DNA of 64,000 nucleotides, from the IMG/VR virus record IMGVR_UViG_3300009181_000058, positions 1 through 64,000 of that record; one strand, written 5' to 3'. This document shows, piece after piece, positions 6,539 through 30,123 of this stretch. Each line of letters starts with the position of its first letter. The stretch's first letter is position 1. The notes below the pieces were generated by a model. It did no database searches and had not been told where the DNA came from. It saw only the letters and a list, made by a program, of their open reading frames with translations. The stretch is from a virus. The position numbers were made by a program, and so were the translations under genes.

Positions 6539-6865
6539 ATGGCAATAACACACAATGAGCAAGTAGAGCATTGGCAACCTGAACAAGTAAAAATCATCAA
6601 CGATAAGGCAGTACGTTTTCGCGACGTATGTGTGCATGAGATTCGCATGGGCGATGTAGAAGATCCGGATTTGATGGTTGCTGAACCCATATGGAAGTGG
6701 CAAGAATCAGATGCTGGTCGATTCATAATGGAAAATGCTGAGGACAAACCTTATTGGTCTCGTAGCATGGATCCTCACAATTATGGACACATGTATCGCA
6801 TTGTGGCCAGGCTCAGCGAACAGAACGAAACTTTTTGGCAACTCAAATGGGGCGATATTAAATGA
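6539..6865 (+). CDS. Conserved phage protein, 108 aa
   Basis: I start at the ATG at 6539 (MAITHNEQVEHWQ...), 20 bases after the thyX stop, because the longer frame from 6458 would lie inside thyX. The product is soluble with several Trp and His residues: EPIWKWQESDAGRFIM and DPHNYGHMYRIVARL. That pattern recurs in small proteins of T4-like phages; no function known. The stop overlaps the epimerase start (ATGA), so it may be transcribed with the sugar genes. Confidence 0.7.
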   Translation: MAITHNEQVEHWQPEQVKIINDKAVRFRDVCVHEIRMGDVEDPDLMVAEPIWKWQESDAGRFIMENAEDKPYWSRSMDPHNYGHMYRIVARLSEQNETFWQLKWGDIK

Positions 6866-7833
6866 GTAAATTTTTAGTAACCGGGGGCATGGGTCTGATT
6901 GGGCACAACGTGGTACAACGACTAGAAGCAAAAGAACATGAAGTTGTGATTGTGGACATCATGACTAACTATGGTATCATTCCGCAAGACGAACTAGAGT
7001 ACTTGTTGGACGAACGGCGCAAGAAGATTGCAACACAGGACATATATCGCACTGATATCTCAGACGCCGAGGCATTTGATCGTGTGGTAGAAGAACACAA
7101 GCCTGATGTGATCATACACATGGCCAGCTTTCCTCGACAGAAAGTTGTGAATGCCAACCCTGCATGGGGTGCCAGAGTCATGACGGAAGGTTTGATCAAC
7201 GTTTGCGAGAGTGCCAAAAAGCATGGTGTGGAGCGTGTGGTGTACATATCCAGCAGTATGGTCTACGGAGACTTTGAAGATCAAGTGCTAGAGGATGCTG
7301 AATGCCGTCCTATTGGACAATATGGAATTATGAAATTATCTGGAGAAGACCTTGTTAAAGATTATCATCGTCGTGGTTGCTTTGACTACGCTATTATCAG
7401 GCCTAGTGCTGTATACGGACCCTTGGACGTGGAAGACCGAGTGGTTGCAAAGTTTATGCTCGCCGCCATGCGAGGCAGCGTTCTCCATGTTAATGGGGTA
7501 TCCGAGACACTAGACTTTACCTATGTGGATGATGCCGCGGATGGTATTGTGGCTGCCGCGACACGCATTATGGCTGCCAACAAGACCTATAACATTACCA
7601 AATCACACTCAGTCAGTTTGTTAGAAGCCGCAGAGATGATTGTTAAGATTGTGGGCAAGGGCACCATTGAGATACGCGACAAGGATGCAGACTTCCCGTC
7701 ACGCGGCGCATTAAATATTGATCGTGCCAGGACCATACTTGGGTATGATCCCCAAGTGGATGTTGAACAAGGATTTGAAAATTACTACAACTGGATTGAC
7801 AATTCCGTTTACTGGTCTAAAAAAGCAGTATAA
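6862..7833 (+). CDS. NAD-dependent epimerase/dehydratase (extended SDR)
   Basis: The 323-residue protein has the extended short-chain dehydrogenase layout: the N-terminal NAD-binding motif T7-G8-G-M-G11-L-I-G14, an acidic residue ending the second strand (VVIVDIM), YISSSMVYG with the catalytic Ser, and Y154-G-I-M-K158 as the catalytic Tyr/Lys pair. The C-terminal half is the substrate domain (DFTYVDDAADGIV). These enzymes alter nucleotide-activated sugars; which sugar cannot be read. It is coupled to the gene before it (ATGA) and overlaps the aminotransferase after it, a pair that together would make an amino sugar. Confidence 0.87.
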   Translation: MSKFLVTGGMGLIGHNVVQRLEAKEHEVVIVDIMTNYGIIPQDELEYLLDERRKKIATQDIYRTDISDAEAFDRVVEEHKPDVIIHMASFPRQKVVNANPAWGARVMTEGLINVCESAKKHGVERVVYISSSMVYGDFEDQVLEDAECRPIGQYGIMKLSGEDLVKDYHRRGCFDYAIIRPSAVYGPLDVEDRVVAKFMLAAMRGSVLHVNGVSETLDFTYVDDAADGIVAAATRIMAANKTYNITKSHSVSLLEAAEMIVKIVGKGTIEIRDKDADFPSRGALNIDRARTILGYDPQVDVEQGFENYYNWIDNSVYWSKKAV

Positions 7834-8878
7834 CAATCTCCGCACAGAAATACTGGACACAACAGATGAAGTGTTGCGTTCAGGTATTCTCATGGGTGGC
7901 AACTATACTGCTGAGTTTGAAAACTGGCTGGCTAAAAAAAATCACGTGAGTTATGCTGTGACTTGTCACTCAGGCACGCAGGCACTTGAGATCTTGGCCA
8001 ATTACTATGCTCAAACCGAATTGAGTTATGTAAAACCTCCTACTGTGCTTGTTCCTGCATTGACTTATCCGGCCACTGCTAATGCTTTCATACGAGCAGG
8101 ATGGCAGGTGATGATTGGTGAGACTGACTACTATGGTCAGTTAGACATACGAAAGACACTCAAGGATATGGATTCGCATTATCATGCTGTGTGTGCTGTG
8201 GGATTGTATGGTGCGGCATTACGTGACATGCAACCAGCACGTAATCGGGCCATCCTGCTGGAAGATGGCGCACAGCATTGGTTGAGTGACAACTGTAACA
8301 GACAAGGCGAGGCCACCGCTATCAGTTTCGATCCCACAAAGAACTTGGCCAATTATGGCAACGGTGGTGCTGTGGTGTCCGATGATAGAAATCTCTTGGA
8401 CTATGCAAGAGACTGGGTGAACAATGGCAAGCATACTCGTCATGCCGAAACTGGTACAAACTCAAGGATGAGCGAAATTGATTGTGCGCAAATGATGGTC
8501 AAGACTCGGCACATAGATGCTTGGCAAAAACGACGTGGTGAGATTGCGGCACACTGGATTGAACAACTAAAGAAGCGCAATGTACGTTCGCTAATTGACG
8601 ACAGCAACTTCTCAACTCATTGCTATCACAAGTTTGTGATTGAAGTGGATGCCAGAGATATTGTGCAACGTAACCTTGCCATATGCAAAATTGAAACCAA
8701 AGTTCACTATGCTGAACCCCTGCATGAATTGCCTGCTTATCAGCACCTGGACAACCCCGGCGGGTTACTAAGTCCAGCATCTGCACTAAGCAGACGTTGC
8801 CTAAGTTTGCCTATCTATCCTGAACTCACAGACCTTGAAGTTGAATACGTTATTGATCAGTTGTTAGAGATCGTTTGA
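7796..8878 (+). CDS. DegT/DnrJ/EryC1/StrS-family aminotransferase
   Basis: PLP-dependent sugar aminotransferase of the DegT family, about 360 residues from my chosen start. The signature pieces are present: the N-terminal IPFTGLKKQYNNLR, SGTQALEILANYY (cofactor phosphate), PALTYPATANAF, LLEDGAQHW (the Asp facing the pyridine nitrogen), ISFDPTKNLANYGNGG with the Schiff-base Lys, and NSRMSEIDCAQMM. I place the start at the TTG at 7796, which yields the usual N-terminus; ATG codons at 7760 or 7718 would add unrelated residues and lengthen the overlap with the epimerase. It converges with the minus-strand gene at 8850, overlapping by 29 nt. Confidence 0.88.
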   Translation: MTIPFTGLKKQYNNLRTEILDTTDEVLRSGILMGGNYTAEFENWLAKKNHVSYAVTCHSGTQALEILANYYAQTELSYVKPPTVLVPALTYPATANAFIRAGWQVMIGETDYYGQLDIRKTLKDMDSHYHAVCAVGLYGAALRDMQPARNRAILLEDGAQHWLSDNCNRQGEATAISFDPTKNLANYGNGGAVVSDDRNLLDYARDWVNNGKHTRHAETGTNSRMSEIDCAQMMVKTRHIDAWQKRRGEIAAHWIEQLKKRNVRSLIDDSNFSTHCYHKFVIEVDARDIVQRNLAICKIETKVHYAEPLHELPAYQHLDNPGGLLSPASALSRRCLSLPIYPELTDLEVEYVIDQLLEIV

Positions 8879-10856
8879 CAAACGCATAACTTGCAAGCCA
8901 TGCCCACTCATAACTCTTCTGGAGTTCAGCGGGATCGCCATTTACAGAGTCATAAAACTCCACTGCATCCTGGGCACCTTTCATGCTCCACTTAGACTGT
9001 GTGTTATCTACAGCGAGCCATTGACAAAGTCTATACTCATTTTCTACATCTGGTAAACTTGCCTTGAGTTTGATCACTTCGCGAAATGCAGTACGCCAAC
9101 ACATCCAATCGTTGATATAATAGTTTGCTGTTCCGGATACAATAGGCACAACTTCATGTGCTTGATCCAGCGTAAAATCTAGCCCAACACCAGTATTCTC
9201 CAATGCTAATTTTTTGTTGTAGGCAATCATGGCCTGATGCCCGTACTGTAATCCATTGACAGGATTACGTGCATGGAAGATATAATGCTTGGCCTGTTGC
9301 ATACGATCTGGTTGCCAGGACCAATCAAACAGTTGATCCACTTCTAATTTGGCAAACACAGCAAAGAACCAAGGTGTGGTGCTGGCTCTAGCAGCCGCAT
9401 GGTATGCTGCCACTCGTCCGTTTACACCGTCTACTAAGTGAACTTTGTTTGTGTATCTTGACTCGTTGGCCAAATACATTGTCATCTGCAAAAAATTAGA
9501 TCTAGCATTGGGTTCGCCATTTGAAATAAACACAATGTCCAAGGGTTGATCTTTTAACATGCGATGTGTTCGGTCTATGTAAGCGTAATCGTACAACTGT
9601 GTGCGTATGTCTCCTACTGCGGCCTTGGGCACAATCACACTGGTTGCGCCCTCACTCAACGGCACAATAGTTTTGGTTTCCTGGCGCCATAACGGAACTG
9701 TGACCAAGTTGCCCGGCACATAATCTGTTGTGGTATACAGGGCCAGCGGACCGTCGAATGGCAGTGCTCGAACTGCTTCAGCCTGACTGTCAAGGGCATG
9801 ATTGATCACCGGCATAGGTCTACGTGGAACACTGGTCTCAACAAAGTTACAGTCGTACCATTCCAACAAAGCCACACGTTCTGCACGATATGCAAATGTG
9901 GGCACATGCATGAAGAATGTGTCCCCAAACTTTTCGCCATCACTGGCAAACACATGTAACATACCTGCTTGCCATTGTTCAGGGTGCCACGAAAAGTCAA
10001 AGTCGCTGTAGTCACAGATTGAGGAACATATCCACACAAACTCATGCTCAGGGCCTATGCTTTTTGCTATGCGTATGAGTGTATCGCGGTAGTTGTCAAA
10101 GTAACGCACACGTCGAGTGGTGTTGGCAATGTTGCCCGTATTACCGTCCATATGATCAATTTCATATATGGCTGTGGCCACTCGGTTGGTTTGTATGACC
10201 ATTTGTCCAATGAATTTTGTATCCAGGGCACCGGACACACAATACTGTGGACCGCCAGTGCGTTGATGTTGTGTGCCAAATTGATAGACATAAGGAGGAT
10301 CTGTATCATCTGGGTGCCAAGTCCAATCAAAACTATCAGTATCTGCGCCTTCGGGAATGATCCAGCAATTGTCTTGTGATATTTTTACAGCCCTGGGTGC
10401 GTCAACATACTTGACCAGGGTGCCACCATTGCGGTATCTTGGCCCACCTGTGCGTTGATGTTGTGTGCCAAATTGATAAGTCATTGGTGGTTCAGTTGGA
10501 TCTGGGTGCCACGTGGTATCAAATGCCTCAATGCCTTCTGGCACAGTCCAGTTGACAGTATCTCTACAGACACGTATAATAACTGGTGCGTCATGATAGT
10601 TTGTGTCAGTGAATACTGCTTTAGGAATCAAATATGTACCAGAATCCTTTTGCCATTGACTGGGCCATGCATGACGTTGTGTGGATTGCCAAGGAACAGG
10701 CTCCCAAAGCCAATCCCACTTGGAATAGTCACATAAGTATGAGATCCACCAAAAATATCTTGTGCGGCTCATGGTCTGTGCATGCTCAATCGAATCAGCC
10801 TCACGCTCGTGTGCAAATTGATTGGGTTTAATACCCGAATAGAATACGTCAAACAT
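8850..10856 (-). CDS. Repeat-containing glycosyltransferase-like protein, 668 aa
   Basis: A large soluble protein with an internal repeat whose core is F-D-x-(S/T)-W-(H/Q)-P, seen near residues 50, 116, 180, 290 and 535. Two copies also share YQFGTQHQRTGGP almost exactly. The last 250 residues resemble the protein at 26993-27919: both have the pattern F(I/L)S..EP, a VDG(V)-G motif, ARN-VNGL-YG, and WR(T/A)(A/G)FRE. That relative carries DGDN, a GT-A metal-binding motif, whereas this one has FAKLEVD at the same place, so its metal site may differ. Function as a glycosyltransferase is inference. The gene starts divergently from 10855 with the two ATGs overlapping at CATG. Confidence 0.6.
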   Translation of the reverse strand: MFDVFYSGIKPNQFAHEREADSIEHAQTMSRTRYFWWISYLCDYSKWDWLWEPVPWQSTQRHAWPSQWQKDSGTYLIPKAVFTDTNYHDAPVIIRVCRDTVNWTVPEGIEAFDTTWHPDPTEPPMTYQFGTQHQRTGGPRYRNGGTLVKYVDAPRAVKISQDNCWIIPEGADTDSFDWTWHPDDTDPPYVYQFGTQHQRTGGPQYCVSGALDTKFIGQMVIQTNRVATAIYEIDHMDGNTGNIANTTRRVRYFDNYRDTLIRIAKSIGPEHEFVWICSSICDYSDFDFSWHPEQWQAGMLHVFASDGEKFGDTFFMHVPTFAYRAERVALLEWYDCNFVETSVPRRPMPVINHALDSQAEAVRALPFDGPLALYTTTDYVPGNLVTVPLWRQETKTIVPLSEGATSVIVPKAAVGDIRTQLYDYAYIDRTHRMLKDQPLDIVFISNGEPNARSNFLQMTMYLANESRYTNKVHLVDGVNGRVAAYHAAARASTTPWFFAVFAKLEVDQLFDWSWQPDRMQQAKHYIFHARNPVNGLQYGHQAMIAYNKKLALENTGVGLDFTLDQAHEVVPIVSGTANYYINDWMCWRTAFREVIKLKASLPDVENEYRLCQWLAVDNTQSKWSMKGAQDAVEFYDSVNGDPAELQKSYEWAWLASYAFVKRSLTTDQ
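10258..10286 (-). repeat. Internal direct repeat, copy 1 (29 bp)
   Basis: The 29-bp segment starting GTGCGTTGATGTTGTGTGCC recurs exactly at 10450-10478, with weaker similarity continuing for some 40 bases. It encodes the QFGTQHQRTGG part of the repeat in the 668-residue protein and shows that two of the repeat units duplicated recently. Confidence 0.8.
10450..10478 (-). repeat. Internal direct repeat, copy 2 (29 bp)
   Basis: Exact partner of 10258-10286, one protein repeat unit (192 bp, 64 codons) away and in frame. Confidence 0.8.
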
Positions 10857-12039
10857 GATTAGAATAGATGAAATTTATAACAATACATTCTGGCCCTGGA
10901 TTAGAAAGAATAGACCAGGCTTTAGAGAATTTTTTTGTGAACCATTCGGGAGAAGCGACCCGGACAGCGTGATGAACTATGGAAGAGACGATTGTCACGA
11001 ACACAATTATATATTCTTTTTTGACCAAGAGCCTATTCATTTGAACATACATCAGCCTACTTTTGAACAAGTTGTCACGCTTAATGAAGACATACATACC
11101 AACTGCTACTGGGAGAGAAACAACGGCAAGTACAAAATGGCAGGAAAAATACCAAGACCTCCGGGATTTGTTGCACCTGGTTACATTGTGACCAGTGAGC
11201 GTGATAGTGAAAACGTTGAGGCTATTTGCAACAAGTACCAATGGAAATCACTATATTATTTCTTTCATGGCTGGGCCGCACTAGATTGGTATCGTGGATA
11301 TGATCGAACATTCTTGATTTCACCGCCAGCAGAACGCACTATTACTCGAACATTTATTGCACCCAATCGTATTGTGGCAGGTGAGCGTCAACACAGGCTA
11401 GAAGTGCTGTATCACCTATTCAAAAATAAATTATTAAACAATCATATCAGTTGTCCAGAAACTTGCCCAGCAGAAAATATCAGTATACACGATGCAGTCA
11501 AACCATTGGTGAACAAGTATCCAGATATTGAACAAGTGTTTGCACAACAAACACTGCCCATTAACTTTGCAGGCGAAACAGATCATCCCATGCATTCATG
11601 TTGGTTGAGCCTGTTCGGTGAGTCGGCAGAAAGTTTACTGTATCTTGTGACAGAAACTATAGCAACAGGGCGCAGACATCACCTGACAGAAAAGACATTC
11701 AAACCCATAGCCCTGGGCATGCCGTTTGTCATTGTAGGTACTCGTGGCAGTCTTGAGTACTTGCGTAGTTATGGATTCCGTACATTTGAGGGTATATGGG
11801 ATGAAAGTTATGACTTGGCAGAAGATTCAGTGCGTATCGAGCGTGTTGCTAGTTTGTTGCGTAGTCTAGACGAACTGCCCCCAGAAGGCAAGCAAGACCT
11901 GTTTGATCAGGCACGAGAAGTTGTAGAACACAATTGGAATCATTTTTATAATGGTGGCTTCGAAGCCGTGCTGTGGGCAGAACTACAGGAGATGTTGAAT
12001 GAAATTGAATCTGATATCGGACCAGACAGTCCGGGGTAA
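10855..12039 (+). CDS. Putative transferase, EK-KP family, 394 aa
   Basis: First of five related proteins in this window. Near residue 278 it has LTEKTFKPIALGMPFVIVG, then LEYLRSYGFRTFEGIWDESYD, the shared C-terminal signature. A middle segment, NRIVAGERQHRLEVLYHLF, matches an N-R-R-L pattern also shared. The order of a small basic segment, then EKxxKP and a Gly-Phe-Thr-Phe loop, resembles the nucleotide-sugar half of some GT-B enzymes such as fucosyltransferases, but the assignment is inference. The start ATG overlaps the divergent gene's ATG. Its 3' end overlaps the next paralogue by 41 nt. Confidence 0.62.
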   Translation: MIRIDEIYNNTFWPWIRKNRPGFREFFCEPFGRSDPDSVMNYGRDDCHEHNYIFFFDQEPIHLNIHQPTFEQVVTLNEDIHTNCYWERNNGKYKMAGKIPRPPGFVAPGYIVTSERDSENVEAICNKYQWKSLYYFFHGWAALDWYRGYDRTFLISPPAERTITRTFIAPNRIVAGERQHRLEVLYHLFKNKLLNNHISCPETCPAENISIHDAVKPLVNKYPDIEQVFAQQTLPINFAGETDHPMHSCWLSLFGESAESLLYLVTETIATGRRHHLTEKTFKPIALGMPFVIVGTRGSLEYLRSYGFRTFEGIWDESYDLAEDSVRIERVASLLRSLDELPPEGKQDLFDQAREVVEHNWNHFYNGGFEAVLWAELQEMLNEIESDIGPDSPG

Positions 12040-13180
12040 AATATATCCTGCTTTTGCAAGACATCAAGCAGAGCCTTACACACAATCATGGCGTGAGTTT
12101 GAACAGCACTGGCCGTTTACTGTGCCACTTAGACTACAGGAATATTGCGAACATCATGGCGTTGAATTGAACATATTTGAGTTGAACGAGGCCTGGCCTA
12201 AAAATACATTCTATCCGGTTGGCCTGGGTTTTTTTGATTTTGACATAGACTATTTTGAACTATTACCCGGCCGTGTGGTCTCTGAACTTGGGCACGGTAA
12301 CATACGTGTATTGTTTTATTATCACGAAGGTGACAATCCTGTAAAGATCAAACAACGACTAGATGAATTAGTGGCCAATCATCAACTGCCCCCTTGTTGT
12401 TATAAATTTGTCAGCGGTAACACAGCCGCACGTGATGTCAAAGGCTTTGTGTACTTTGCTGATTCTGAACTATGGTATTGGCATCGAAATCATGCCACAG
12501 CACCAATGGTCATACACGATCAACCACGTGAGCGTGAGTTCACTGCCTTGAACAGATTACACAAAACATGGCGTGCCACTGCAATGGCCGATTTACTACA
12601 GCATCATGTGTTGGACAACAGTTATTGGAGTTATTGCGAATCGGGTGAGGTTGTGGATGAAGAAAACCCTATTGAGATTGATTCGTTTGATGATTTAAGA
12701 GCCAGAACAGAGCAATTTTTAAAGTCAGCACCGTACTACAGCGATGAGTTAAATCAAACAGAACGTAACAATCATGCCAACCTTGTGGGCAAGTACTTCT
12801 CAAATAGTTATTGTCATATTGCACTGGAAACACATTTTGATGCTGATCAGTCTAGTGGAGTACTTTTATCAGAAAAAACATTCAAACCTATCAAACACGG
12901 ACAGATGTTTTTTGTAGTAGGACCAGCAGGCAGTCTACAAACCCTACGCAATCTGGGTTATAGAACATTTGACGGCATCCTGGATAACAGTTATGATTAC
13001 GATCATAATAATACACATCGTTGGACCAAACTGCGCAATGCAATAGTCCGGGCACAATCTGATTTGCCTAGATTACATGCTCGTGCCAGGGCAGACATAG
13101 AACACAACCAACGTTTATTTCTTGAACTCAAGACAGCCCGCTTAAATATCCTACTCGAGCACATAAATGAATCCTATTAA
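11999..13180 (+). CDS. Putative transferase, EK-KP family, 393 aa
   Basis: Paralogue of the preceding gene and probably its duplicate. The signature near residue 290 is LLSEKTFKPIKHGQMFFVVG followed by LQTLRNLGYRTFDGILDNSYDYD; the middle segment has LNRLHKTWRATAMADLL. The N-terminal third is different and rich in Phe, Tyr and Glu. A large overlap (41 nt upstream) and a 14-nt overlap with the amidinotransferase downstream tie it into one transcript. No membrane segments. Likely a soluble sugar or group transferase acting with its neighbours. Confidence 0.62.
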   Translation: MKLNLISDQTVRGKIYPAFARHQAEPYTQSWREFEQHWPFTVPLRLQEYCEHHGVELNIFELNEAWPKNTFYPVGLGFFDFDIDYFELLPGRVVSELGHGNIRVLFYYHEGDNPVKIKQRLDELVANHQLPPCCYKFVSGNTAARDVKGFVYFADSELWYWHRNHATAPMVIHDQPREREFTALNRLHKTWRATAMADLLQHHVLDNSYWSYCESGEVVDEENPIEIDSFDDLRARTEQFLKSAPYYSDELNQTERNNHANLVGKYFSNSYCHIALETHFDADQSSGVLLSEKTFKPIKHGQMFFVVGPAGSLQTLRNLGYRTFDGILDNSYDYDHNNTHRWTKLRNAIVRAQSDLPRLHARARADIEHNQRLFLELKTARLNILLEHINESY

Positions 13181-23425: not shown

Positions 23426-24515
23426 TGAATAAGTTACTAACTATGTGGTTTTGTTCATCAGCCCATTCATACCAACGTTGTCTATTATGCAACAAGTCCG
23501 GTAGCATGCGGTTGTACATATCTAGTAGTTCAGTTGGGCTGGCTGTACTCAGTTGTTTTATTGCCGCAATCAATGCAGTGTGTAGTGTGTCATTGGGATC
23601 TATTGTGGGATCAGGACGAAGTTTCAGTCCCGGAAAATAATGATCAAACATACGAAATCCATTGTGTTCCCAGAATTCGTAATGTTGTGTTTGTCCGTTG
23701 ATCAAGAAAGGTCGCAGGCCAATAATGGGTTTAAAATCAATTTGATTTATAAATTGATTTCGAGGATTGTTACTGGTGCCACCTACTATGTGCAAGAAAT
23801 GATGTTGCCAATAATGCATATTGTGCAAACTAAAAAGGTCGTGTGGGATGTCGTGTGGGGTAGCGGCTGAGCTTTCAGGGTACCAGTGTCCGTATTTTAC
23901 ATAGTCCTGATTTTTCTCTCCAATGGAGAAATAAAGATCCTTGTCCGGCCCTGTATCCCCGTCGAAAGATCTTCCCAGGGTCACTACTCCAAGATCCTTT
24001 AGATTGTGTTCGATTAACTTTTTTACAAATGCCAATCTATGTGGGTAAGGTTTGCGATTGTAACTGATAAACAAGTACTTGGGATCAGTCAATACTAATT
24101 CTTGTGTTTGATATATTTCAAAATGATCTCTGCACACAATAGCAAAAAAGTTAAAGTAAATGGTTGTGCTGTCTGCAGGCGCCCAGATGGGGCTGGGGGT
24201 GTCAAAGTTGCCCAGGAAGTATGTGTGTTTGATCGCCAGGCGTTGGATTAGTTCCAGTACCACTGGTTCGTGATGCTGTGAAAAGTAATCCACAGTGGAC
24301 ACCACAAACAAGTTGTCAAACTGTTCTCCTGCTGTGAGTATTTGTTGCAGTTCCGCATCCTCGCTGGGCGGCAAGCGCCAGGTGGTATTGAACAGCAGAT
24401 TGCGTTGCGTGGGGAAAGTCTGATCAATCTGTTGCTGAATACCGCGAAGTATTGACTGTTCGTAACTGCCATAAACCCATTGTTCAGGAAAGGAATTAAT
24501 TATACTTGTGATCAT
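23418..24515 (-). CDS. Putative transferase, divergent EK-KP family member, 365 aa
   Basis: Fourth member, and the least typical. Near residue 260 it reads NQIDFKPIIGLRPFLING and then WEHNGFRMFDHYFPG, keeping F-KP-G-PF and GF-F but losing the SEK part. The middle segment LFISYNRKPYPHRLAFVKKL matches the R..R pattern of the others. The sequence from 1 to 130 is alpha/beta. The Glu-Lys loss may change ligand binding. It is bracketed by a radical SAM gene (8-nt overlap) and another family member (4-nt overlap). Confidence 0.58.
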   Translation of the reverse strand: MITSIINSFPEQWVYGSYEQSILRGIQQQIDQTFPTQRNLLFNTTWRLPPSEDAELQQILTAGEQFDNLFVVSTVDYFSQHHEPVVLELIQRLAIKHTYFLGNFDTPSPIWAPADSTTIYFNFFAIVCRDHFEIYQTQELVLTDPKYLFISYNRKPYPHRLAFVKKLIEHNLKDLGVVTLGRSFDGDTGPDKDLYFSIGEKNQDYVKYGHWYPESSAATPHDIPHDLFSLHNMHYWQHHFLHIVGGTSNNPRNQFINQIDFKPIIGLRPFLINGQTQHYEFWEHNGFRMFDHYFPGLKLRPDPTIDPNDTLHTALIAAIKQLSTASPTELLDMYNRMLPDLLHNRQRWYEWADEQNHIVSNLFNE

Positions 24516-25630
24516 TTGAGGTTGAATGTGCGGTCCACAAAGTCCAGGAACTGCTGGGGGAATTCAGCGCGAATTTTAGGGCCAAGGTCGGCCATATGCT
24601 GTTGATTATACTTACTTATTTGTTCCGCCGCAACCAGGAATTTTGCCAGGTCTTGTTGACATAGATCTTGTACCACCGCTACAATTCTATCTAGTCTGTC
24701 TTGATTGTTGTCCATTAGATCAAATGATTCGTCTATTAGATGACTGTAGGTTTGGAATCCTTGTTTTTTTAAGTCCCGATAAAAACCACAATTGGCCACT
24801 GCTATCCAGGGATGGCCCATGGCAATGGGTTTGTATATCTTTTCACTGCGCAAACTGTATGGATAATCGCATACTGTTTCTGTTACCAAACTAAAATAGG
24901 TATCAACATAAGGTTCAGCCTGTATGTAGATTTCTCCCCAATGGTCATTAAATAATTCTGCCTTGACAAAGGAGTTTTGGTGTGCCATATCCAAGCCCAC
25001 ACGAAATTGGTCAACTTCATATTTTGCGGGCAACAACTGTATTTTTGAAGGTCTGGACAACAGATCAGTTTGGTATGTGTGATGGTACACTGGTGCAATG
25101 TCTAGATTGGTCCACAATGCCTGATCTAACAATGTACGCAGACTTTCAATCATGTATTTTCTGTGCGGGCGTGTGCGGCCATTTAAAAACAAGAACTTGT
25201 AGGGTTTATGTAGTTTGGCATATATTTCATCTACTCTGGCACATTGATCACGATTTTCTTTGTACTCATATGGTTTGCACAAATAACTGTCGTAGAACAA
25301 GTGCGGTAGGTCAGATTCCATGTCACCACAGCCTACCAGGGCCATTTTGTTCTGTTTTAATAAATCTATTAGACCCAGGCGTTCACATTGATGTTTCAAT
25401 GTACTAGATCCTTCTGTAGGGTTGGCCAACACAGGATAAAAGAAACCAGTACTGGCCAATTCTTTAATCTTCACATGGTGCTGATTGAATGCTTGACGAC
25501 TTATCACTGTGACAGAGCCTGCTTGCGGCTCATGCTGATCAAAATCCCAAAATGTATTGTCACAAAACTGTGCTATCTGTGGATATATTTCACAGAAAGT
25601 ATCGCATATGAGTTTATGTGTTTTTGGCAT
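24512..25630 (-). CDS. Putative transferase, EK-KP family, 372 aa
   Basis: Fifth member. I start at the ATG at 25630 (MPKTHKLICDTF...), because the frame runs further upstream only as an overlap with the radical SAM gene. Near residue 258 it has LRSEKIYKPIAMGHPWIAV followed by YRDLKKQGFQTYSHLIDESFD; the middle segment is FLFLNGRTRPHRKYMIESL. VGCGDMESD near residue 113 is a possible glycine-rich turn. It overlaps the radical SAM gene at 25614 by 17 nt and its paralogue at 23418 by 4 nt. Confidence 0.62.
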   Translation of the reverse strand: MPKTHKLICDTFCEIYPQIAQFCDNTFWDFDQHEPQAGSVTVISRQAFNQHHVKIKELASTGFFYPVLANPTEGSSTLKHQCERLGLIDLLKQNKMALVGCGDMESDLPHLFYDSYLCKPYEYKENRDQCARVDEIYAKLHKPYKFLFLNGRTRPHRKYMIESLRTLLDQALWTNLDIAPVYHHTYQTDLLSRPSKIQLLPAKYEVDQFRVGLDMAHQNSFVKAELFNDHWGEIYIQAEPYVDTYFSLVTETVCDYPYSLRSEKIYKPIAMGHPWIAVANCGFYRDLKKQGFQTYSHLIDESFDLMDNNQDRLDRIVAVVQDLCQQDLAKFLVAAEQISKYNQQHMADLGPKIRAEFPQQFLDFVDRTFNLK

Positions 25631-26993
25631 GATACTCACATTCGGCCCACCAGGCACGCATTTCAGGAAATGTTGCCAAGAAGTCTGTGCCTCGGCGGCA
25701 ATCATGTTCCGCAAAGAAACGATAAAAATCTGCACGAGCCACAGAATGATCTTGTGCCTGCGCACTACGCATCCAGGCAATGTCTCTATCCAGGCGTGCC
25801 ACTTCATAGTCTTTGAATCCGTGATAGGGATTGGTGTCTGTGATTAAATTTTGACTCATCCAGTCTCGAACACTTTCTAGTCGCTGTGCATATGATTCAG
25901 GCAAGGTCTGTAGGCTTTGCCAGGCAGGCTGTCTAAGCACAGGTGTATCAAACCACACACGCTGATATGTTGTGCTATGTTTCCGACGTAGTTCCAGTAT
26001 GCCCTCCAGCAGTTGTTGCAGACTGCTCACTGACAGATTGTTCATTGTGATAATAAACGTTAGACTGTTGTAGGAGGGCACTTGAGTCAAGTATTGATCC
26101 ACACGTGACCACACTAGATCAAACGTCATACCGTGTCGCATGTACTCTGCTTGAGCACCCCAGCCATCTAAACTCACATACTGCATGAAATGTTCTATGC
26201 GGCCATCACAAATGGTTTTGACAGCGGTCAGATACTTTTGAAACAACACTTCATCTACTGAGAAGTTTGATGTAACGTTCAAGTGCAGTTTCTTTGACGG
26301 ATTTTCAATCACATGGTCAAACACTCTGTATGTGTTCTTGTCCATTAGCGGTTCACCACCGGTCATTCTAAAGTGTTCCAGTGTGGGATATAGTTGGGGC
26401 CACCAGGCCCAAAATGCTTCTACATAAGGGTTATGCTCTCGGGCAGGAATAATGCGCCTATTCCCGGTAAAATGGTCCAGACTGTTGTGCGGAGTACTGG
26501 TAGCATAAGGCCCCATTCTCTGTGCTTCATCGTGCCAACTGCTACTAAATTGAGGACTACAATAACTACACTTGAGATTGCAAGCGTGATTAAAATTAAC
26601 TTCAACATAACTAGGGATAATATCATCTTCGGCTCCTGTCGAATTTTTTATTTGTTCAAAGTCCATGGCGGCCCAGGGTTCGCCCGAACGATAGTGTCGA
26701 TCACTCAATTTGCCCCGATCTTCCATGTTCCAGCAATAGGAGCATTCTTGTGGCCGCTCATTGCGCAACATTATTTGTCTCTGTTGTTTTTTGTGCTCGG
26801 TATTGTGTAGAGCACTGGGATTGAGTTTGACTGCTTCGGGGTCTATGGCATGTAGCGGTGGATGGTAGCAGGAATTGTTGAGTCCTGTAGGCAAGTGCAG
26901 GCTGACTTGTTTCCATTTGGCCAAACATAGTGCAGGACCCAGTTTGTCTTTCATTTGCTCTGCTGAGCCCATGAACACACTCTTGTTATCCAT
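25614..26993 (-). CDS. Radical SAM protein, CxHPP subtype (5 of 5)
   Basis: 459 residues. The radical SAM motif is C138-NLK-C142-SY-C145, with GGEPLM downstream. N-terminal cysteines are C23 (LCLAKW), C42 (SCYHPPLHAIDP) and C84/C87 (CSYCW). It pairs with the 443-residue protein as a second subtype in which CxHPP replaces the Cys-Cys pair. The start ATG overlaps the upstream stop (TAATG). The two subtypes may act on different substrates, or successively on one. Confidence 0.85.
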   Translation of the reverse strand: MDNKSVFMGSAEQMKDKLGPALCLAKWKQVSLHLPTGLNNSCYHPPLHAIDPEAVKLNPSALHNTEHKKQQRQIMLRNERPQECSYCWNMEDRGKLSDRHYRSGEPWAAMDFEQIKNSTGAEDDIIPSYVEVNFNHACNLKCSYCSPQFSSSWHDEAQRMGPYATSTPHNSLDHFTGNRRIIPAREHNPYVEAFWAWWPQLYPTLEHFRMTGGEPLMDKNTYRVFDHVIENPSKKLHLNVTSNFSVDEVLFQKYLTAVKTICDGRIEHFMQYVSLDGWGAQAEYMRHGMTFDLVWSRVDQYLTQVPSYNSLTFIITMNNLSVSSLQQLLEGILELRRKHSTTYQRVWFDTPVLRQPAWQSLQTLPESYAQRLESVRDWMSQNLITDTNPYHGFKDYEVARLDRDIAWMRSAQAQDHSVARADFYRFFAEHDCRRGTDFLATFPEMRAWWAECEYHAKNT

Positions 26994-27919
26994 TACCAGC
27001 CCTCTTGTTGACGAATAATGTCTATTTCTCTAGTCATGATGCCACGGTTTGTAAAGTTTGATCGATAGTGATGCTTGAAGAATTGGCTTTGTTCTGCTTC
27101 CAGCATGGCCAAGGGCAGGTCTAGTGTGGTCCCTAATTCTTCTGCCACACGGTTGGCCAGCAAGCGCGGATCACTATCCTTTACTGTGTCCCACAGTTCA
27201 CGTAGTCGTTCAAAGTCCTGTACCATTATGTAATCCACATTGGTCAGCATGGTCATATATGTGCCCATACGACTTCCTGCAATGCACCACATGCCATTTT
27301 CCACATCTGCACCCACGTTGTGCCAAATAGTCAAATTATCTAGGTTGCGTTGATGCACACGTTGTTTGAAGTCTTGTATAGTGGGTTTGGAACCTTGATT
27401 CAAACACATCTTTACACCTTCACGAAAGCCGGCACGCCAGGCATGGAATGGGCTTTGGTTGGGATAAGTTGTGCTGTAGCAGTCATGCATGGCCCAGTAC
27501 AAGGGATCAAAACAAAACTCTACCACAGTTTCATCGCGTCCGTCTGTATTCTCGTGTGTGCGCATGTTCATCACATGTTCTCGAGTCCATGAACTCAGGC
27601 CACCATTGCCATACATGAGTCCGTTCACATGATTACGAGCCCGCCACCGGAACACAGCCCGCTCATGGTCTGATGTGGCAAAATCAAGTGTTTGATTAAA
27701 AAACGCCGGATCGGGGATATTGTCTCCATCCACAAGGATAAATCTTTCGGTGTCACTTGCCAGGGCCGCGGCTTTGTGTGCCGCATCGCTTCCCAGTACA
27801 CCATCGACCCTACGGGCCCAAGGCACCATGTTTTTAATTCGGATCCAATATTGTTCTTTTTCGGGTTCGTCATATGATAGGTAGATGCAGTCTAGGTCTG
27901 CAATGTCAATAGGATTCAT
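26993..27919 (-). CDS. GT-A-like glycosyltransferase, 308 aa
   Basis: The N-terminal half looks like a GT-A fold: a first strand DLDCIYLSYDEP, then RRVDGVLGSDAAHKAAALAS, and FILVD64-G-D66-NIPD, a DxD-type metal and nucleotide-sugar motif. Further on are ARNHVNGLMYGNGG and FHAWRAGFREGVKM, which are shared with the C-terminal part of the 668-residue protein at 8850, so the two are homologues. It probably transfers a sugar; donor and acceptor are unknown. It overlaps the gene upstream by 14 nt. Confidence 0.7.
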   Translation of the reverse strand: MNPIDIADLDCIYLSYDEPEKEQYWIRIKNMVPWARRVDGVLGSDAAHKAAALASDTERFILVDGDNIPDPAFFNQTLDFATSDHERAVFRWRARNHVNGLMYGNGGLSSWTREHVMNMRTHENTDGRDETVVEFCFDPLYWAMHDCYSTTYPNQSPFHAWRAGFREGVKMCLNQGSKPTIQDFKQRVHQRNLDNLTIWHNVGADVENGMWCIAGSRMGTYMTMLTNVDYIMVQDFERLRELWDTVKDSDPRLLANRVAEELGTTLDLPLAMLEAEQSQFFKHHYRSNFTNRGIMTREIDIIRQQEGW

Positions 27920-28238
27920 GTGTTTTCATACTCCATCTTTGGTAAGGCTCTGTTGCAGGCACTACTATGGCCACGTTGTCGGGATGGCAAGCAGTTCCTG
28001 TATCTGTAGGTGTAAGTCTGCGCACAGCAGATTTTAATTCAATCAGTTGACCCGCTTGCACTCGAACATTCATGGGTGCCCGAGCATAAGTTTCAGCATC
28101 AACATCAATGTATGTACCAGGTAAATCTTCCATGCTGTAGGTTATTGGCTCACCTGATTCGTCGTGGTACAAGCGCCATGACACTGATTGTGGTTCAGGC
28201 ATGGCATGCAAGATTGCCCAGAATTCTTCAGCGTTCAT
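27906..28238 (-). CDS. Hypothetical protein, 110 aa
   Basis: I start at the ATG at 28238 (MNAEEFWAILHAM...), leaving an 11-nt overlap with the upstream gene; a start at 28274 would extend it. The protein has a helix, then a beta-rich part (YRLYHDESGEPITYS-like, GTYIDVDAETYARAP, VRVQAGQLIEL). Its conserved-looking end PATEPYQRWSMKTH contains several aromatic residues. No known domain. It lies between two glycosyltransferase-like genes and shares their operon. Confidence 0.65.
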   Translation of the reverse strand: MNAEEFWAILHAMPEPQSVSWRLYHDESGEPITYSMEDLPGTYIDVDAETYARAPMNVRVQAGQLIELKSAVRRLTPTDTGTACHPDNVAIVVPATEPYQRWSMKTHESY

Positions 28239-29013
28239 GGTGCCAATTCTTAACGTTGTAATGAAATGCACCACGTTGCACGACAGTGTTTACTCGCAGT
28301 TCATAATCGCGGTATTCACAAATCAATTCGTCCACCCAAGGATCTCGCTTGGCGGCAATAATATGACGTTTCATGTGTATGATAGTGGGGTAACTGGCAA
28401 AAGGCATGGTACATGTTTCAGGTCCCTGGATCATGGCCGCAATGGCATATACCACATCCGTCGACGGTGACTGTTCGGGAAATTTTAACATGGCACGATA
28501 CTGCGGCCAGTTTTCAAATATGTTGCGTACAGTCACAAAGAACTCCTGTGCTGTTTTACTCAAGCGCCAGTAGGTAATTGCATTGTAAACATCTGGCAAA
28601 TGGTTGGCATCAAACACTTGACGATAGTGTCTAGACTTGGCTCGCTGATCTTTCCAGTCTCTACAGCCTGTTGATACCACTACATCACGATGACGTAACA
28701 TGGTCCACCAGTGATCAACAGGGCTGGTGATCAACATGTCTGCCTCTAGTTTGATTGTTTCACGGAATGGTGTAGCGTTGAACACTTGCCAGTCATTGGC
28801 ATAAGGGTTAGCCGTATCAATGGGAAACGGAAACTTGCGAACGTAATCGAACAAATGATCAGGCTCACGGTCTTCATTGGTCAACAAACAAATTTTTGCA
28901 TCAGGGTGCCAGTACTTGATGGTCTTGGCCAGAGTTTCACTGCAATTCACATAGTCTGTGTCTTGAGTATTAGTTGCTACTATTAGGTAGCCTTTTTCCT
29001 CAACAGGTTTCAA
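28228..29013 (-). CDS. Glycosyltransferase-like protein (GT-A type), 261 aa
   Basis: The first strand GYLIVATNTQDTDYV and ICLLTNEDREPD, then ETIKLE90-A-D92-MLITSPVDHWW, fit the pattern of GT8-type or DUF-type sugar transferases in which ExD or DxD binds metal and nucleotide. The following stretch VVVSTGCRDWKDQ and NAITYWRLSKTAQEFF continue that pattern. The protein at 29000 is a relative with LDAD at the same place. It is soluble and acts probably in the cytoplasm on an activated sugar. Confidence 0.7.
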   Translation of the reverse strand: MKPVEEKGYLIVATNTQDTDYVNCSETLAKTIKYWHPDAKICLLTNEDREPDHLFDYVRKFPFPIDTANPYANDWQVFNATPFRETIKLEADMLITSPVDHWWTMLRHRDVVVSTGCRDWKDQRAKSRHYRQVFDANHLPDVYNAITYWRLSKTAQEFFVTVRNIFENWPQYRAMLKFPEQSPSTDVVYAIAAMIQGPETCTMPFASYPTIIHMKRHIIAAKRDPWVDELICEYRDYELRVNTVVQRGAFHYNVKNWHHER

Positions 29014-29806
29014 TTATTTTCTCCAAATGTTGTTTACCCATGGCATGAAAGTCTTGATTGCGTACGGTGGTCCAACGTGGGCGCTTGTGTTGGTCTATAT
29101 AATCTATTCTGTAGCAATCTTTGCTGGTTCTAGTCACAGTATGTTCAGGGGTGACACTGGCTAGATCCCAAGGCACACTTTTATATTCCAATGTTTGTCC
29201 ATTTACAATATTGAGTGCTATGCTTAGTGCATGATCATTGCGATAGGTAGAACTGGCGATTCGATACAGATCTTTATAGTGCCGCCAGTTGGCTCGAATC
29301 ATTCGCATGCAGTCAAATATCAATTGAGCATGAGTGCTCTTCCGAAACATCATTACTGTGGCCCATGACATGGGCATATTGTATTCACCGTAGTGATTTA
29401 ATCCTACAAAATTATCAACTCCAGTAATGTCATAAGCATGATCATGTGCCAAGAACTCTTGATTGCTATCGAGTAAGATCTTTAACTGATCACTGGCCAC
29501 CACATAGTCAGCGTCCAGTACTAGGGTTTGATCCCAAGGAGAAAGAGTATAGGCATCAGTTCTACCTGCGTTGTGCCACGTAACAGTTGCCTGATAATCC
29601 TCAAACCAACGTGTTCCTCCCGATTCAGGTGCGGCGCTGATGACTTGATCAAAGCCCCGAAGTCGCGGATCCTCGGGCCGGGTATCAGTGACCACGGCGG
29701 TAGGTATGTTGAGGTGCCTACGAATGTTTCTAGCACTCCACTCAGCCATAGCAACGTAGTCGGTCGATTCATTGTCAAAAGCAAATATCAGTGCGCCTGT
29801 GGTCAT
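29000..29806 (-). CDS. Glycosyltransferase-like protein (GT8-type DxD), 268 aa
   Basis: 268 residues with ALIFAFDNESTDYVAMAEW, PTAVVTDTRPED, QTLVLD98-A-D100-YVVASDQL and MSWATVMMFRKSTHAQLIF, in the order seen in GT8-like glycosyltransferases (nucleotide-sugar binding, DxD, acceptor region). It is a paralogue of the 261-residue protein next door. A 14-nt overlap separates them and a 4-nt overlap (ATGA) ties it to the conserved protein at 29803. Confidence 0.75.
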   Translation of the reverse strand: MTTGALIFAFDNESTDYVAMAEWSARNIRRHLNIPTAVVTDTRPEDPRLRGFDQVISAAPESGGTRWFEDYQATVTWHNAGRTDAYTLSPWDQTLVLDADYVVASDQLKILLDSNQEFLAHDHAYDITGVDNFVGLNHYGEYNMPMSWATVMMFRKSTHAQLIFDCMRMIRANWRHYKDLYRIASSTYRNDHALSIALNIVNGQTLEYKSVPWDLASVTPEHTVTRTSKDCYRIDYIDQHKRPRWTTVRNQDFHAMGKQHLEKIIETC

Positions 29807-30111
29807 CGGTTACGGTTGAGATTTTCATGTTCTACCCGCCAGGCATTCATTTGCTCTTGCCAGCGAGCATGTGATAGAGCAAACAATTCGGGAACATTTA
29901 CTTTTACCGGAGTTTCGTATAGGTCCAGTAACACAACATCCTTGTCCTGGGCACAGGCCAACAACACACATTGCAGTTCAGGTCCGGCACGCCACATTCC
30001 GCCTGCATGGGCAAACAACATTCGGGCCTCGTATTTTTCTTTTAGGGTGCGCCTAGCGGTGGCGTGATCGAATCTAGCCCGTGCATGGGCCACAAGTTTT
30101 TCAGTTTCCAT
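29803..30111 (-). CDS. Conserved phage protein, 102 aa
   Basis: I start at the ATG at 30111 (METEKLVAHARARFDH...) rather than 15 bases further out. A helical N-terminus with repeated Arg/Ala/His leads to EKYEARMLFAHAGGMW, then a strand-rich segment DVVLLDLYETPVKVNV and ARWQEQMNAW. The same pattern recurs, by memory, as a conserved small protein near the fibre genes of T4-like marine phages. It is the first gene after the structural module's terminator, and TATAAT sits right before its start. Confidence 0.75.
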   Translation of the reverse strand: METEKLVAHARARFDHATARRTLKEKYEARMLFAHAGGMWRAGPELQCVLLACAQDKDVVLLDLYETPVKVNVPELFALSHARWQEQMNAWRVEHENLNRNR

Positions 30112-30117
30112 AGATTT

Positions 30118-30123
30118 ATTATA
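30118..30123 (-). promoter_or_regulatory. Possible -10 box for the central minus-strand operon
   Basis: On the minus strand, TATAAT lies 6 bases ahead of the ATG at 30111 and directly after the T-tract of the terminator. There is no good -35 (TAGACT at 17 bases). TATAATAAAT is also loosely like the late-promoter cores. If used, the mRNA would start at or near the ATG. Confidence 0.35.

What the first reader, a model, noticed from the sequence alone, without database searches (positions are those of the whole stretch)
6862..30111. A 23-kb phage cluster combining five radical SAM enzymes with sugar, amidino, carbamoyl and glycosyl transfer genes
Over about 23 kb the genome devotes some 20 genes to a pathway unrelated to replication or assembly: epimerase, DegT aminotransferase, amidinotransferase, carbamoyltransferase, five radical SAM proteins, five EK-KP proteins and four GT-A-like proteins. 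The combination of aminotransferase, amidinotransferase and carbamoyltransferase resembles aminoglycoside-type or nodulation-factor-type decoration. It could alter the phage or host surface, or modify a nucleic acid or nucleotide. I know of single members in marine phages, not of this complete set.
Basis: partly seen in the sequence, partly recalled or inferred. Interest (0 to 1): 0.85.

Follow-up and report, generated by a model that had tools for sequence, protein, structure and literature searches.

The report
Jumbo-phage sugar-decorating gene cluster
Uncultivated giant phages carry, right beside genes that look like tail-fibre genes, a conserved set of five radical enzymes plus sugar-transfer and sugar-decorating genes that probably builds an unusual decorated sugar chain, perhaps for the phage's own tail fibres.

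Summary
The gene list is real. All five radical SAM proteins pass the NCBIfam N_Twi_rSAM cut-off with conserved cluster cysteines. The five EK-KP proteins are one family; the one modelled is a GT-B fold nearest alpha-1,3-fucosyltransferase. Of four 'GT-A-like' proteins, two match glycogenin (GT8), one is weakly GT2-like, one has lost its DGDN. Epimerase, DegT aminotransferase, amidinotransferase and NovN/GdmN-type carbamoyltransferase are confirmed. A cyclophilin-like core protein was missed.

The window is a fragment of an uncultivated jumbo myovirus. Five radical SAM genes and carbamoyltransferase form a syntenic core (40-42 of 42 distinct loci). The block lies behind fibre-like virion genes in 120 of 120 distinct loci, but a conserved terminator-like hairpin (88 of 127 gaps) suggests a separate transcription unit. 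One GT8-like gene covaries with the middle of the fibre-like protein (exploratory).

Best reading: a cytosolic saccharide assembly and radical-tailoring cassette, most likely acting on tail fibres; host-surface remodelling is the main rival; T4-style DNA hypermodification is disfavoured. Reactions, substrate and host are unknown. New variant of known phage glycan/host-recognition clusters.

The parts
6862..7833 (+). SDR nucleotide-sugar epimerase (SSSMVYG, so epimerase-like rather than TDE-type 4,6-dehydratase; motif meaning recalled)
   Evidence: PF01370 E 8e-44; phrog_540 nucleotide-sugar epimerase; median identity 40% where found in relatives
7718..8878 (+). DegT/DnrJ/EryC1 PLP sugar aminotransferase, PseC/WecE-like; true start probably downstream of 7718
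   Evidence: PF01041 E 7e-56; TIGR03588 PseC E 4e-38, below its cut-off
8850..10856 (-). 668-aa protein, C-terminal part related to the 26993-27919 GT-A-like protein but without its DGDN
   Evidence: BLASTP E 9e-5 over 207 columns; alignment A6, 17 sequences; HMM cross-hits
10855..12039 (+). EK-KP glycosyltransferase-like protein (GT-B by homology to 18092-19132)
   Evidence: alignment A2; fold of the homologue
11999..13180 (+). EK-KP glycosyltransferase-like protein
   Evidence: A2; no match in phage records
13167..14204 (+). Amidinotransferase of the AGAT/StrB1/SxtG family; His191 and Cys330 invariant
   Evidence: PDB profile match E 5e-19; alignment A3, 24 sequences
14201..15688 (-). O-carbamoyltransferase, NovN/GdmN/TobZ type
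   Evidence: PF16861 E 1e-47, PF02543 E 1e-33; best PDB chain decarbamoylnovobiocin carbamoyltransferase E 5e-52; 42 of 42 loci
15783..16817 (-). Core protein of unknown function: cyclophilin-like barrel with helical insert around residues 55-163
   Evidence: AlphaFold pLDDT 90.2; VIA-align best Z 10.2, rmsd 3.5, 138 aligned, to cyclophilins; Foldseek best E 0.82; 38 of 42 loci
16810..18099 (-). N-terminal-twitch radical SAM enzyme 1
   Evidence: NF033640 273 bits; 9 Cys conserved in 75 aligned sequences incl. CxxxCxxC and twitch Cys
18092..19132 (-). EK-KP glycosyltransferase-like protein, structure-modelled representative
   Evidence: pLDDT 90.7; GT-B, top VIA-align 2nzw alpha1,3-FucT Z 13.4, rmsd 3.8, 266 aligned
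19125..20339 (-). N-terminal-twitch radical SAM enzyme 2
   Evidence: NF033640 331 bits; Cys conserved in 73 aligned sequences; 41 of 42 loci
20415..22112 (-). N-terminal-twitch radical SAM enzyme 3 with an extra N-terminal region of about 165 aa
   Evidence: NF033640 409 bits over residues 167-563; Cys conserved in 85 aligned sequences; 41 of 42 loci
22094..23425 (-). N-terminal-twitch radical SAM enzyme 4
   Evidence: NF033640 291 bits; Cys ligands conserved in 75 aligned sequences; 42 of 42 loci
23418..24515 (-). EK-KP glycosyltransferase-like protein
   Evidence: A2; best-match hit in only 6 of 42 loci
24512..25807 (-). EK-KP glycosyltransferase-like protein; as called it overlaps the upstream gene by 194 b, so the true start is probably inside
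   Evidence: A2; coordinates
25614..26993 (-). N-terminal-twitch radical SAM enzyme 5
   Evidence: NF033640 320 bits; Cys ligands 96-100% in 67 aligned sequences; 40 of 42 loci
26993..27919 (-). GT-A-like (GT2-like, weak) protein with invariant DGDN
   Evidence: PF13641 weak in 6 of 22 members, best E 0.034; alignment A4
27906..28274 (-). small conserved protein of unknown function
   Evidence: synteny patterns
28228..29013 (-). GT8-like (glycogenin-like) protein; covaries with the middle of the fibre-like protein
   Evidence: joint A5 profile to glycogenin-1 E 3e-4; no Pfam hit; partial r 0.27 and 0.34 with quarters 2 and 3 of the fibre-like protein
29000..29806 (-). GT8-like protein with DAD motif
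   Evidence: joint A5 profile; within 6 kb behind the fibre-like genes in 120 of 120 distinct loci
29803..30126 (-). small conserved protein, first gene of the unit
   Evidence: 119 of 120 loci
30131..30152 (-). intrinsic-terminator-like hairpin between the fibre-like genes and the cluster
   Evidence: the scan as a whole is not above shuffles: 21 against 17.8; in relatives a perfect hairpin of 7 bp or more with T tail in 88 of 127 distinct gaps, shuffled mean 0.2, 35 different stems; 0 of 87 p15783-carb gaps, 0 of 21 rs20415-rs19125 gaps, 5 of 141 in the 28228-26993 interval
30171..31181 (-). Ser/Thr-rich (31%) protein of the fibre region, possible acceptor (inferred)
   Evidence: no Pfam or PHROG match; composition; synteny
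31195..33144 (-). fibre-like virion protein (23% Ser/Thr), possible acceptor; 'tail fibre' is inferred from repetitive sequence and place behind the baseplate genes
   Evidence: phrog_14394 virion structural protein over residues 2-73, E 3e-9; no Pfam match; composition; synteny

Best explanation
The block 6862-30126 is a saccharide assembly and tailoring cassette of a jumbo phage. Shown or well supported: five distinct twitch radical SAM proteins with conserved cluster ligands, an O-carbamoyltransferase, an AGAT-type amidinotransferase, a sugar epimerase and aminotransferase, and glycosyltransferase folds or profiles. Inferred: epimerase and DegT aminotransferase make an amino-sugar nucleotide; the GT8-like and EK-KP GT-B enzymes build a chain in the cytosol; the five radical SAM enzymes carry out fixed oxidations, epimerisations, deoxygenations or couplings on it; amidinotransferase and carbamoyltransferase cap amino and hydroxyl groups, as in aminoglycosides and novobiocin. 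The most likely acceptor is the phage's own Ser/Thr-rich fibre-like virion proteins encoded next door (tail fibres, inferred), so that the decorated fibre meets the host or evades recognition.
For: Families and folds. Conservation: the radical SAM genes are in 40, 42, 41, 41 and 42 of 42 distinct covered loci (the last is the gene used to pick the loci), carbamoyltransferase in 42, p15783 in 38. The radical SAM proteins form five clades (22 sampled each; groups were chosen by at least 40% identity to the window protein, so this is partly built in), so five separate jobs seem to be kept, while EK-KP hits vary from 0 to 5 per locus in 37 long loci. Tie to fibres: the fibre-like gene and the 30171 protein lie within 6 kb upstream on the same strand in 120 of 120 distinct loci, and fibre-like hits precede the GT8 pair also in a distant phage-like contig where p15783, carbamoyl- and amidinotransferase were not seen in the 37 kb fetched. 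The GT8-like gene 28228 covaries with the middle of the fibre-like protein (partial r 0.27 and 0.34, 0 of 299 permutations each), not with its N-terminal quarter (-0.03), while 29803, 29000, 26993 and two radical SAM genes stay at 0.04 or below in those quarters. No membrane protein is visible in the cluster (hydropathy), so lipid-linked assembly or export is not encoded there.
Against: That the neighbours are tail fibres is inferred; they have no Pfam match and only a weak virion-protein PHROG. A conserved terminator-like hairpin separates the cluster from them in 88 of 127 gaps, so it is probably not one operon. Counting changes of fibre class on gene trees did not single out 28228: coarse classes 9 changes (26993 also 9, structural neighbour 33166 7), fine classes 26 (33166 18, 26993 20, 29000 24). 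Weaker covariation also appears with non-GT genes (29803 with 30171, 0.12-0.16; radical SAM 22094 with fibre quarter 4, 0.13). The tests are exploratory, on related, similarity-selected loci. Published readings of similar clusters favour host LPS (PMC7029224, PMC7824862). A Vibrio phage with a radical SAM cluster has a gene annotated PagP nearby. No reaction is known to me for this radical SAM subfamily; the substrate is inferred. The amidinotransferase is in only 23 of 42 loci.
Confidence: 0.4

Rival explanations
1. Host-surface remodelling: the cassette decorates the host's LPS O-chain or capsule during infection, to block superinfection or change attachment of progeny.
For: Published interpretation of GT-rich host-recognition regions of pelagimyophages (PMC7029224, passages) and of cyanophage clusters (PMC7824862 section 22). 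Probably its own transcription unit. EK-KP enzymes change quickly between relatives, as O-antigen genes do. PagP annotated near a radical SAM cluster in Vibrio phage K566.
Against: No membrane protein, so no flippase, ligase or lipid-linked initiating enzyme, seen in the cluster (hydropathy; the host could supply them); 28228 covaries with the fibre-like protein.
Confidence: 0.3
2. A diffusible aminoglycoside-like or guanidino-sugar metabolite made during infection.
For: Carbamoyltransferase closest to NovN and GdmN among solved structures, amidinotransferase in the AGAT/StrB1/SxtG family, DegT enzyme. PMC7824862 predicts either glycan decoration or a secondary metabolite for a cyanophage carbamoyltransferase cluster.
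Against: No exporter or resistance family matched in the cluster proteins scanned; several variable GTs fit a polymer better; placed behind fibre-like genes in the loci examined.
Confidence: 0.13
3. Peptide or protein tailoring: the twitch/SPASM radical SAM enzymes modify a phage protein directly (fibre or another peptide), with the cyclophilin-like protein presenting the substrate.
For: SPASM/twitch radical SAM enzymes often act on peptides (recalled for other families); cyclophilin-like fold of 15783-16817 in 38 of 42 loci.
Against: No precursor peptide recognised (none was searched for systematically); sugar-nucleotide and GT genes unexplained; the barrel match is fold only, with no sequence match.
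Confidence: 0.08
4. Hypermodification of phage DNA: glycosylated or carbamoylated bases.
For: A phage carbamoyltransferase of this superfamily acts on 5hmC (PMC8670742, passages); the EK-KP fold is also near T4 beta-glucosyltransferase (1c3j Z 12.8); two related records (G006, G007) do have PF00303, not tested whether synthase or hydroxymethylase.
Against: No PF00303 match in 11 of 13 records, among them 5 of 7 of 320 kb or more (records may be incomplete). The carbamoyltransferase is 25% identical to the 5hmC enzyme and has GNRS where that has CNTT. The paper finds carbamoyltransferases flanked by glycosyltransferases in unmodified contigs. The Tet/JBP search rang in no control and shows nothing.
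Confidence: 0.06

Closest known systems
Host-recognition cluster of pelagimyophages (PMC7029224; passages seen)
   Same: Tail-fibre genes with several glycosyltransferases and, in one comparison, added radical SAM cassettes in one region.
   Different: There called hypervariable; here a fixed order of five radical SAM genes with carbamoyltransferase and a cyclophilin-like protein. Its main text has no 'carbamoyl' or 'amidinotransferase' (0 hits each).
Cyanophage polysaccharide clusters of P-SSM2/S-SSM6a (PMC7824862; section 22 read)
   Same: Epimerases, glycosyltransferases, carbamoyltransferases; glycan or secondary-metabolite reading.
   Different: No 'radical' in the main text (0 hits); other cluster partners (halogenase, oxygenases); different phage group.
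N_Twi_rSAM, NCBIfam NF033640
   Same: All five radical SAM proteins pass the family cut-off.
   Different: Five paralogue groups kept together in order; seven related records hold 8-16 members each over the cut-off, none of 14 control genomes holds one.
GT10 alpha-1,3-fucosyltransferase (2nzw)
   Same: GT-B fold, Z 13.4, rmsd 3.8, 266 aligned.
   Different: About 10% identity and no Pfam hit; other GT-B families within Z 1.
Mycobacteriophage virion glycosylation (Freeman et al. 2023; not read, seen only as cited in PMC12619734)
   Same: Glycans on virion proteins of a phage.
   Different: No radical SAM, amidino- or carbamoyltransferase set known to me there (recalled).
5hmC carbamoyltransferase (PMC8670742; passages seen)
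   Same: Same superfamily.
   Different: 25% identity and no thymidylate-synthase homologue in most related records searched.

Membership tests
NCBIfam N_Twi_rSAM | score over curated cut-off of 170 bits | tested here: met
   273, 331, 409, 291 and 320 bits
NCBIfam N_Twi_rSAM | CxxxCxxC and N-terminal twitch cysteines | tested here: met
   conserved at 96-100% in 67-85 aligned sequences of each of the five groups, the window's included, not dereplicated
GT10 fucosyltransferase | GT-B fold like 2nzw | tested here: met
   Z 13.4, 266 aligned, one of five EK-KP proteins modelled; other GT-B families tie
GT10 fucosyltransferase | match to a Pfam glycosyltransferase model | tested here: not met
   0 families at E up to 0.01 for all five EK-KP proteins; so like, not filed as, GT10
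GT8 / glycogenin | profile match to family structures | tested here: met
   joint profile of the 28228 and 29000 families to glycogenin-1, E 3e-4 over 90 positions; but no Pfam hit
AGAT-type amidinotransferase | family profile match | tested here: met
   AGAT, StrB1, HsvA and SxtG chains, E 5e-19 to 6e-14; no Pfam hit
AGAT-type amidinotransferase | catalytic Asp-His-Cys | tested here: inconclusive
   His191 and Cys330 invariant in 24 sequences and aligned with an AGAT His and Cys; the Asp could not be placed (triad recalled)
NodU/TobZ/NovN carbamoyltransferase | both Pfam domains over cut-off | tested here: met
   162 and 118 bits against 27 and 24
5hmC-type DNA hypermodification | thymidylate-synthase-type hydroxymethylase in the genome | tested here: inconclusive
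   absent in 11 of 13 records incl. the window's 77-kb fragment and 5 of 7 of 320 kb or more; present in G006 and G007; records may be incomplete
Cyclophilin (15783-16817) | cyclophilin-like barrel | tested here: met
   best Z 10.2, 138 aligned, but Foldseek best E 0.82
Cyclophilin (15783-16817) | sequence match to the family | tested here: not met
   no Pfam hit, no PDB profile hit at E up to 1; not filed as a cyclophilin
LPS/O-antigen biosynthesis cluster | membrane steps (initiation on lipid, flipping, ligation) in the cluster | tested here: not met
   no 19-residue window above 1.6 mean hydropathy except 1.97 in the doubtful N-terminal extension of 24512-25807; the host could supply these steps
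Virion protein glycosylation | glycan on purified virion protein | not testable with these tools
   needs mass spectrometry of virions

The most novel reading that the evidence does not exclude
A virus-borne, aminoglycoside-like glycan: five dedicated twitch radical SAM enzymes tailor a guanidinylated and carbamoylated oligosaccharide that fibre-specific GT8-like and GT10-like enzymes put on the phage's own tail fibres, so that a whole uncultivated jumbo-phage lineage carries radical-chemistry glycoproteins as its host-contact surface.
Probability: 0.25. Interest if true: 0.85.

Novelty: new variant of a known kind. Interest (0 to 1): 0.6.

Why it matters
The N_Twi_rSAM subfamily has, as far as I know, no assigned reaction. 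Here five groups of it are kept in fixed order with a carbamoyltransferase, and mostly with a cyclophilin-like protein, in a lineage of jumbo phages, which gives a defined pathway with named partners to reconstitute. If the target is the tail fibre, it would show that phages use radical chemistry to build their host-contact surface, a layer that sequence-based host prediction does not see.

Tried and rejected
T4-type late promoter: TATAAATA occurs once in the window, in front of the fibre-like gene, once in L006, and 12 times in relative G004 but not in its cluster; not above chance, dropped. One operon with the fibre-like genes: given up after the terminator-like hairpin; the s_33166-fibre and fibre-30171 gaps are too short to be fair controls (median 33 and 15 b), the p15783-carb gap is the fair one. 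First covariation runs used some truncated or wrong-start sequences, incl. one 26-aa fibre and one empty 30171 protein; one search was too strict (27 loci; there 28228 gave 0.20 and 0.27 with quarters 2 and 3, but 26993 also gave 0.23 with quarter 1); (80 distinct of 98 complete loci, of 314 examined) is the one relied on. Fibre-class parsimony did not single out a GT. Tet/JBP search rang nowhere, controls included: uninformative. Bacterial context of N_Twi_rSAM: 2 of 245 genomes of one unnamed phylum over the cut-off, and the clustered one lies on a jumbo-phage-like contig; no bacterial guilt-by-association was gained. Baseplate search in two MAGs found nothing, so their phage content is inferred from gene content only. 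Foldseek's top row for EK-KP (EngA, TM 0.2) was discarded. The environment of the contigs was not looked up. Literature: 9 searches; 4 papers opened: passages, one section and one outline; none read whole. I saw no description of this five-radical-SAM cluster in the listings or passages; the library is open-access only. On re-checking I lowered the tail-fibre reading from 0.42 to 0.40, because the fibre identity is inferred and weaker covariation with non-GT genes exists.

Full report
What the window is. The window is part of a 77,249-base virus record. PHROG matches give baseplate, virion and late sigma-factor proteins. The baseplate wedge is 34.3% and 33.5% identical over 97-99% to the jumbo phages Phosso (Sinorhizobium) and Atu_ph07 (Agrobacterium). 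Relatives of the cluster lie on contigs up to 364 kb. No tRNA gene was found in the window. Host and environment are unknown to me.

Epimerase, DegT aminotransferase and carbamoyltransferase have strong Pfam matches. The amidinotransferase has no Pfam or NCBIfam match but matches the AGAT, StrB1, HsvA and SxtG structures (phmmer best E 4e-15; profile best E 5e-19). The five radical SAM proteins score 273-409 bits against NF033640 (cut-off 170). In alignments of 67-85 sequences for each, the CxxxCxxC triad and the N-terminal twitch cysteines are 96-100% conserved.

The EK-KP proteins. The five align as one family (69 sequences) without Pfam, PHROG or PDB profile match. The model of 18092-19132 (pLDDT 90.7) is a GT-B fold; the best structural alignments are alpha-1,3-fucosyltransferase 2nzw (Z 13.4, rmsd 3.8, 266 aligned, 10% identity) and, tied within 1, a glucosyltransferase 8xsg and T4 beta-glucosyltransferase 1c3j (Z 12.8). 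So it works like a GT-B transferase; I do not file it as GT10.

The GT-A-like proteins. A joint profile of 28228-29013 and 29000-29806 matches glycogenin-1 (E 3e-4), though no member has a Pfam GT hit. 26993-27919 is only weakly GT2-like (6 of 22 members) with an invariant DGDN. The C-terminal part of 8850-10856 is related to it (E 9e-5) but has FAKLEV at that place, so it may not be catalytic.

Its model (pLDDT 90.2) is a cyclophilin-like barrel with a helical insert (best Z 10.2, 138 aligned; Foldseek's best E was 0.82). Two GTDB contigs carry it; the MAG of one also carries other core genes, probably misbinned phage DNA.

How conserved the set is. Among 42 distinct loci with enough sequence on both sides, the five radical SAM genes are present in 40, 42, 41, 41 and 42 (the last is the gene the loci were picked by), carbamoyltransferase in 42, p15783 in 38, amidinotransferase in 23. 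Twenty-eight of 37 long loci have exactly five radical SAM hits (two have four, six have six, one has seven), while EK-KP hits range from 0 to 5. The radical SAM proteins fall in five clades (22 sampled from each by at least 40% identity to the window protein, so partly by construction; support 0.78-1.0). The seven records of 320-364 kb (G001-G007) hold 8 to 16 NF033640 members over the cut-off; none of 14 control genomes holds one over it (counted from its table). G004 has 6 further EK-KP, 3 further amidinotransferase-like and 6 further radical SAM profile hits elsewhere in its genome. These loci were chosen by similarity, so the synteny figures describe this lineage and its near kin.

Place in the genome. 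In 120 of 120 distinct loci with 6 kb of upstream sequence the fibre-like gene and the 30171 protein lie within 6 kb before the GT8-like pair on the same strand; the shown order patterns with fibre - 30171 - 29803 - 29000 cover 115 of them. In a distant phage-like contig in a bacterial MAG the order fibre-like hits - GT8 pair - 26993 homologue - radical SAM is kept while other partners differ. 'Fibre' is inferred: 31195-33144 has only a weak virion-protein PHROG match and 30171-31181 none. They are 23% and 31% Ser+Thr, against 6-16% for cluster proteins. The gap between 30171 and 29803 holds a terminator-like hairpin (30131-30152); of 127 distinct relative gaps 88 have a perfect hairpin of 7 bp or more with a T-rich tail, with 35 different stems, against 0.2 in shuffles, 0 of 87 in the p15783-carb gap and 5 of 141 in the 28228-26993 interval (shuffled 1.6). 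So the cluster is probably its own transcription unit behind the fibre unit.

Fibre and GT covary. In 80 distinct loci with nine genes extracted, the rank distances of 28228 correlate with those of fibre quarters 2 and 3 after removing the seven other genes (partial r 0.27 and 0.34; 0 of 299 permutations each), not with quarter 1 (-0.03) and weakly with quarter 4 (0.07). 29000 correlates with quarter 4 (0.20) and with the C-terminal half of 30171 (0.20). 29803, 29000, 26993 and both radical SAM genes tested stay at 0.04 or below in quarters 2 and 3; the structural neighbour 33166 correlates with all quarters (0.21-0.32), as linkage would give. Against this: 29803 correlates with both halves of 30171 (0.16, 0.12) and radical SAM 22094 with quarter 4 (0.13), and fibre-class parsimony on gene trees does not single out 28228 (9 changes against 9 and 7; 26 against 18-24 with finer classes). 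I take the covariation as suggestive only.

Mechanism. Among solved structures the carbamoyltransferase is closest to NovN and GdmN, which act on small-molecule hydroxyls (activities recalled). Twitch radical SAM dehydrogenase plus DegT aminotransferase recalls BtrN/BtrS of butirosin (recalled, no call). Together with the amidinotransferase this fits a tailored amino-sugar saccharide. The acceptor is inferred: tail fibres are favoured by synteny, Ser/Thr content, covariation and the lack of membrane steps; host surface is the main rival. DNA hypermodification is disfavoured and by the contig statistics in PMC8670742, though two of seven large records do hold PF00303.

What is known. PMC7029224 (passages) reports glycosyltransferases and radical SAM cassettes in the host-recognition region of pelagimyophages and reads the glycosyltransferases as host O-chain modification. 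PMC7824862 (section 22) reports cyanophage glycan and carbamoyltransferase clusters; its main text has no 'radical'. PMC12619734 (passages and abstract) describes an aquatic jumbo lineage with core glycosyltransferases and no 'radical' in its main text; whether it is related was not tested. In the phage collection, two of the five radical SAM proteins were searched: Vibrio phages K566/K567, nt-1 and CZ01 and the single-cell virus AG-345-D19 have relatives at about 22-25% identity. A contig of AG-345-D19 has carbamoyltransferase (47%), amidinotransferase and radical SAM genes together.

Verdict. It is a new variant of phage glycan/host-recognition clusters, with a conserved five-enzyme radical SAM core. 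That the product is a decorated saccharide I hold at about 0.75; that it sits on tail fibres, 0.40.

Noticed in passing
window 30131-30152 (- strand): Conserved terminator-like hairpin with many different stems between the fibre-like genes and the cluster in relatives.
   Followed up: yes
L082; G013 contigs C6, C35, C37, C42, C48, C66: A GTDB MAG labelled Candidatus Pacearchaeota (ARS103) holds ten N_Twi_rSAM matches over the cut-off and parts of this phage core; probably misbinned phage DNA (baseplate search empty).
   Followed up: partly
L221-L222 (G116:C57, 335,231 b): A jumbo-phage-like contig in a bacterial MAG with a related fibre-GT-radical SAM cluster; desaturase-like, sugar-dehydrogenase-like and SGNH-like proteins are among its ORFs (names by eye).
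   Followed up: partly
L081 (Vibrio phage K566 149844-180542): Five ORFs match my radical SAM profile; a gene annotated PagP (lipid A) and one annotated nicotinamide phosphoribosyltransferase lie nearby.
   Followed up: no
L190 (MH319727): Single-cell marine virus contig with carbamoyltransferase (47%), amidinotransferase and radical SAM together; a way to a host if the cell is known.
   Followed up: no
window 33937-48126 (- strand): Single 4729-aa virion ORF (phrog_10938).
   Followed up: no
window 3707-4576 (+): PP-loop/Asn-synthase-like protein (weak), with a relative beside the distant cluster in L221 (24%).
   Followed up: no
G000:C1:68945-69409 (outside the window, L006): Weak sixth radical SAM-like match, far below the cut-off.
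   Followed up: no
G003:C1:318146-319294: N_Twi_rSAM match over the cut-off with one in-frame TAG.
   Followed up: no
G004 (L092-L109): Among 95 proteins scanned: TerC, two Clp proteases, guanylate-cyclase and CHASE2 domains, FkbM methyltransferase, fatty-acid desaturase and UDP-glucose/GDP-mannose dehydrogenase matches (25 of 45 families shown).
   Followed up: no
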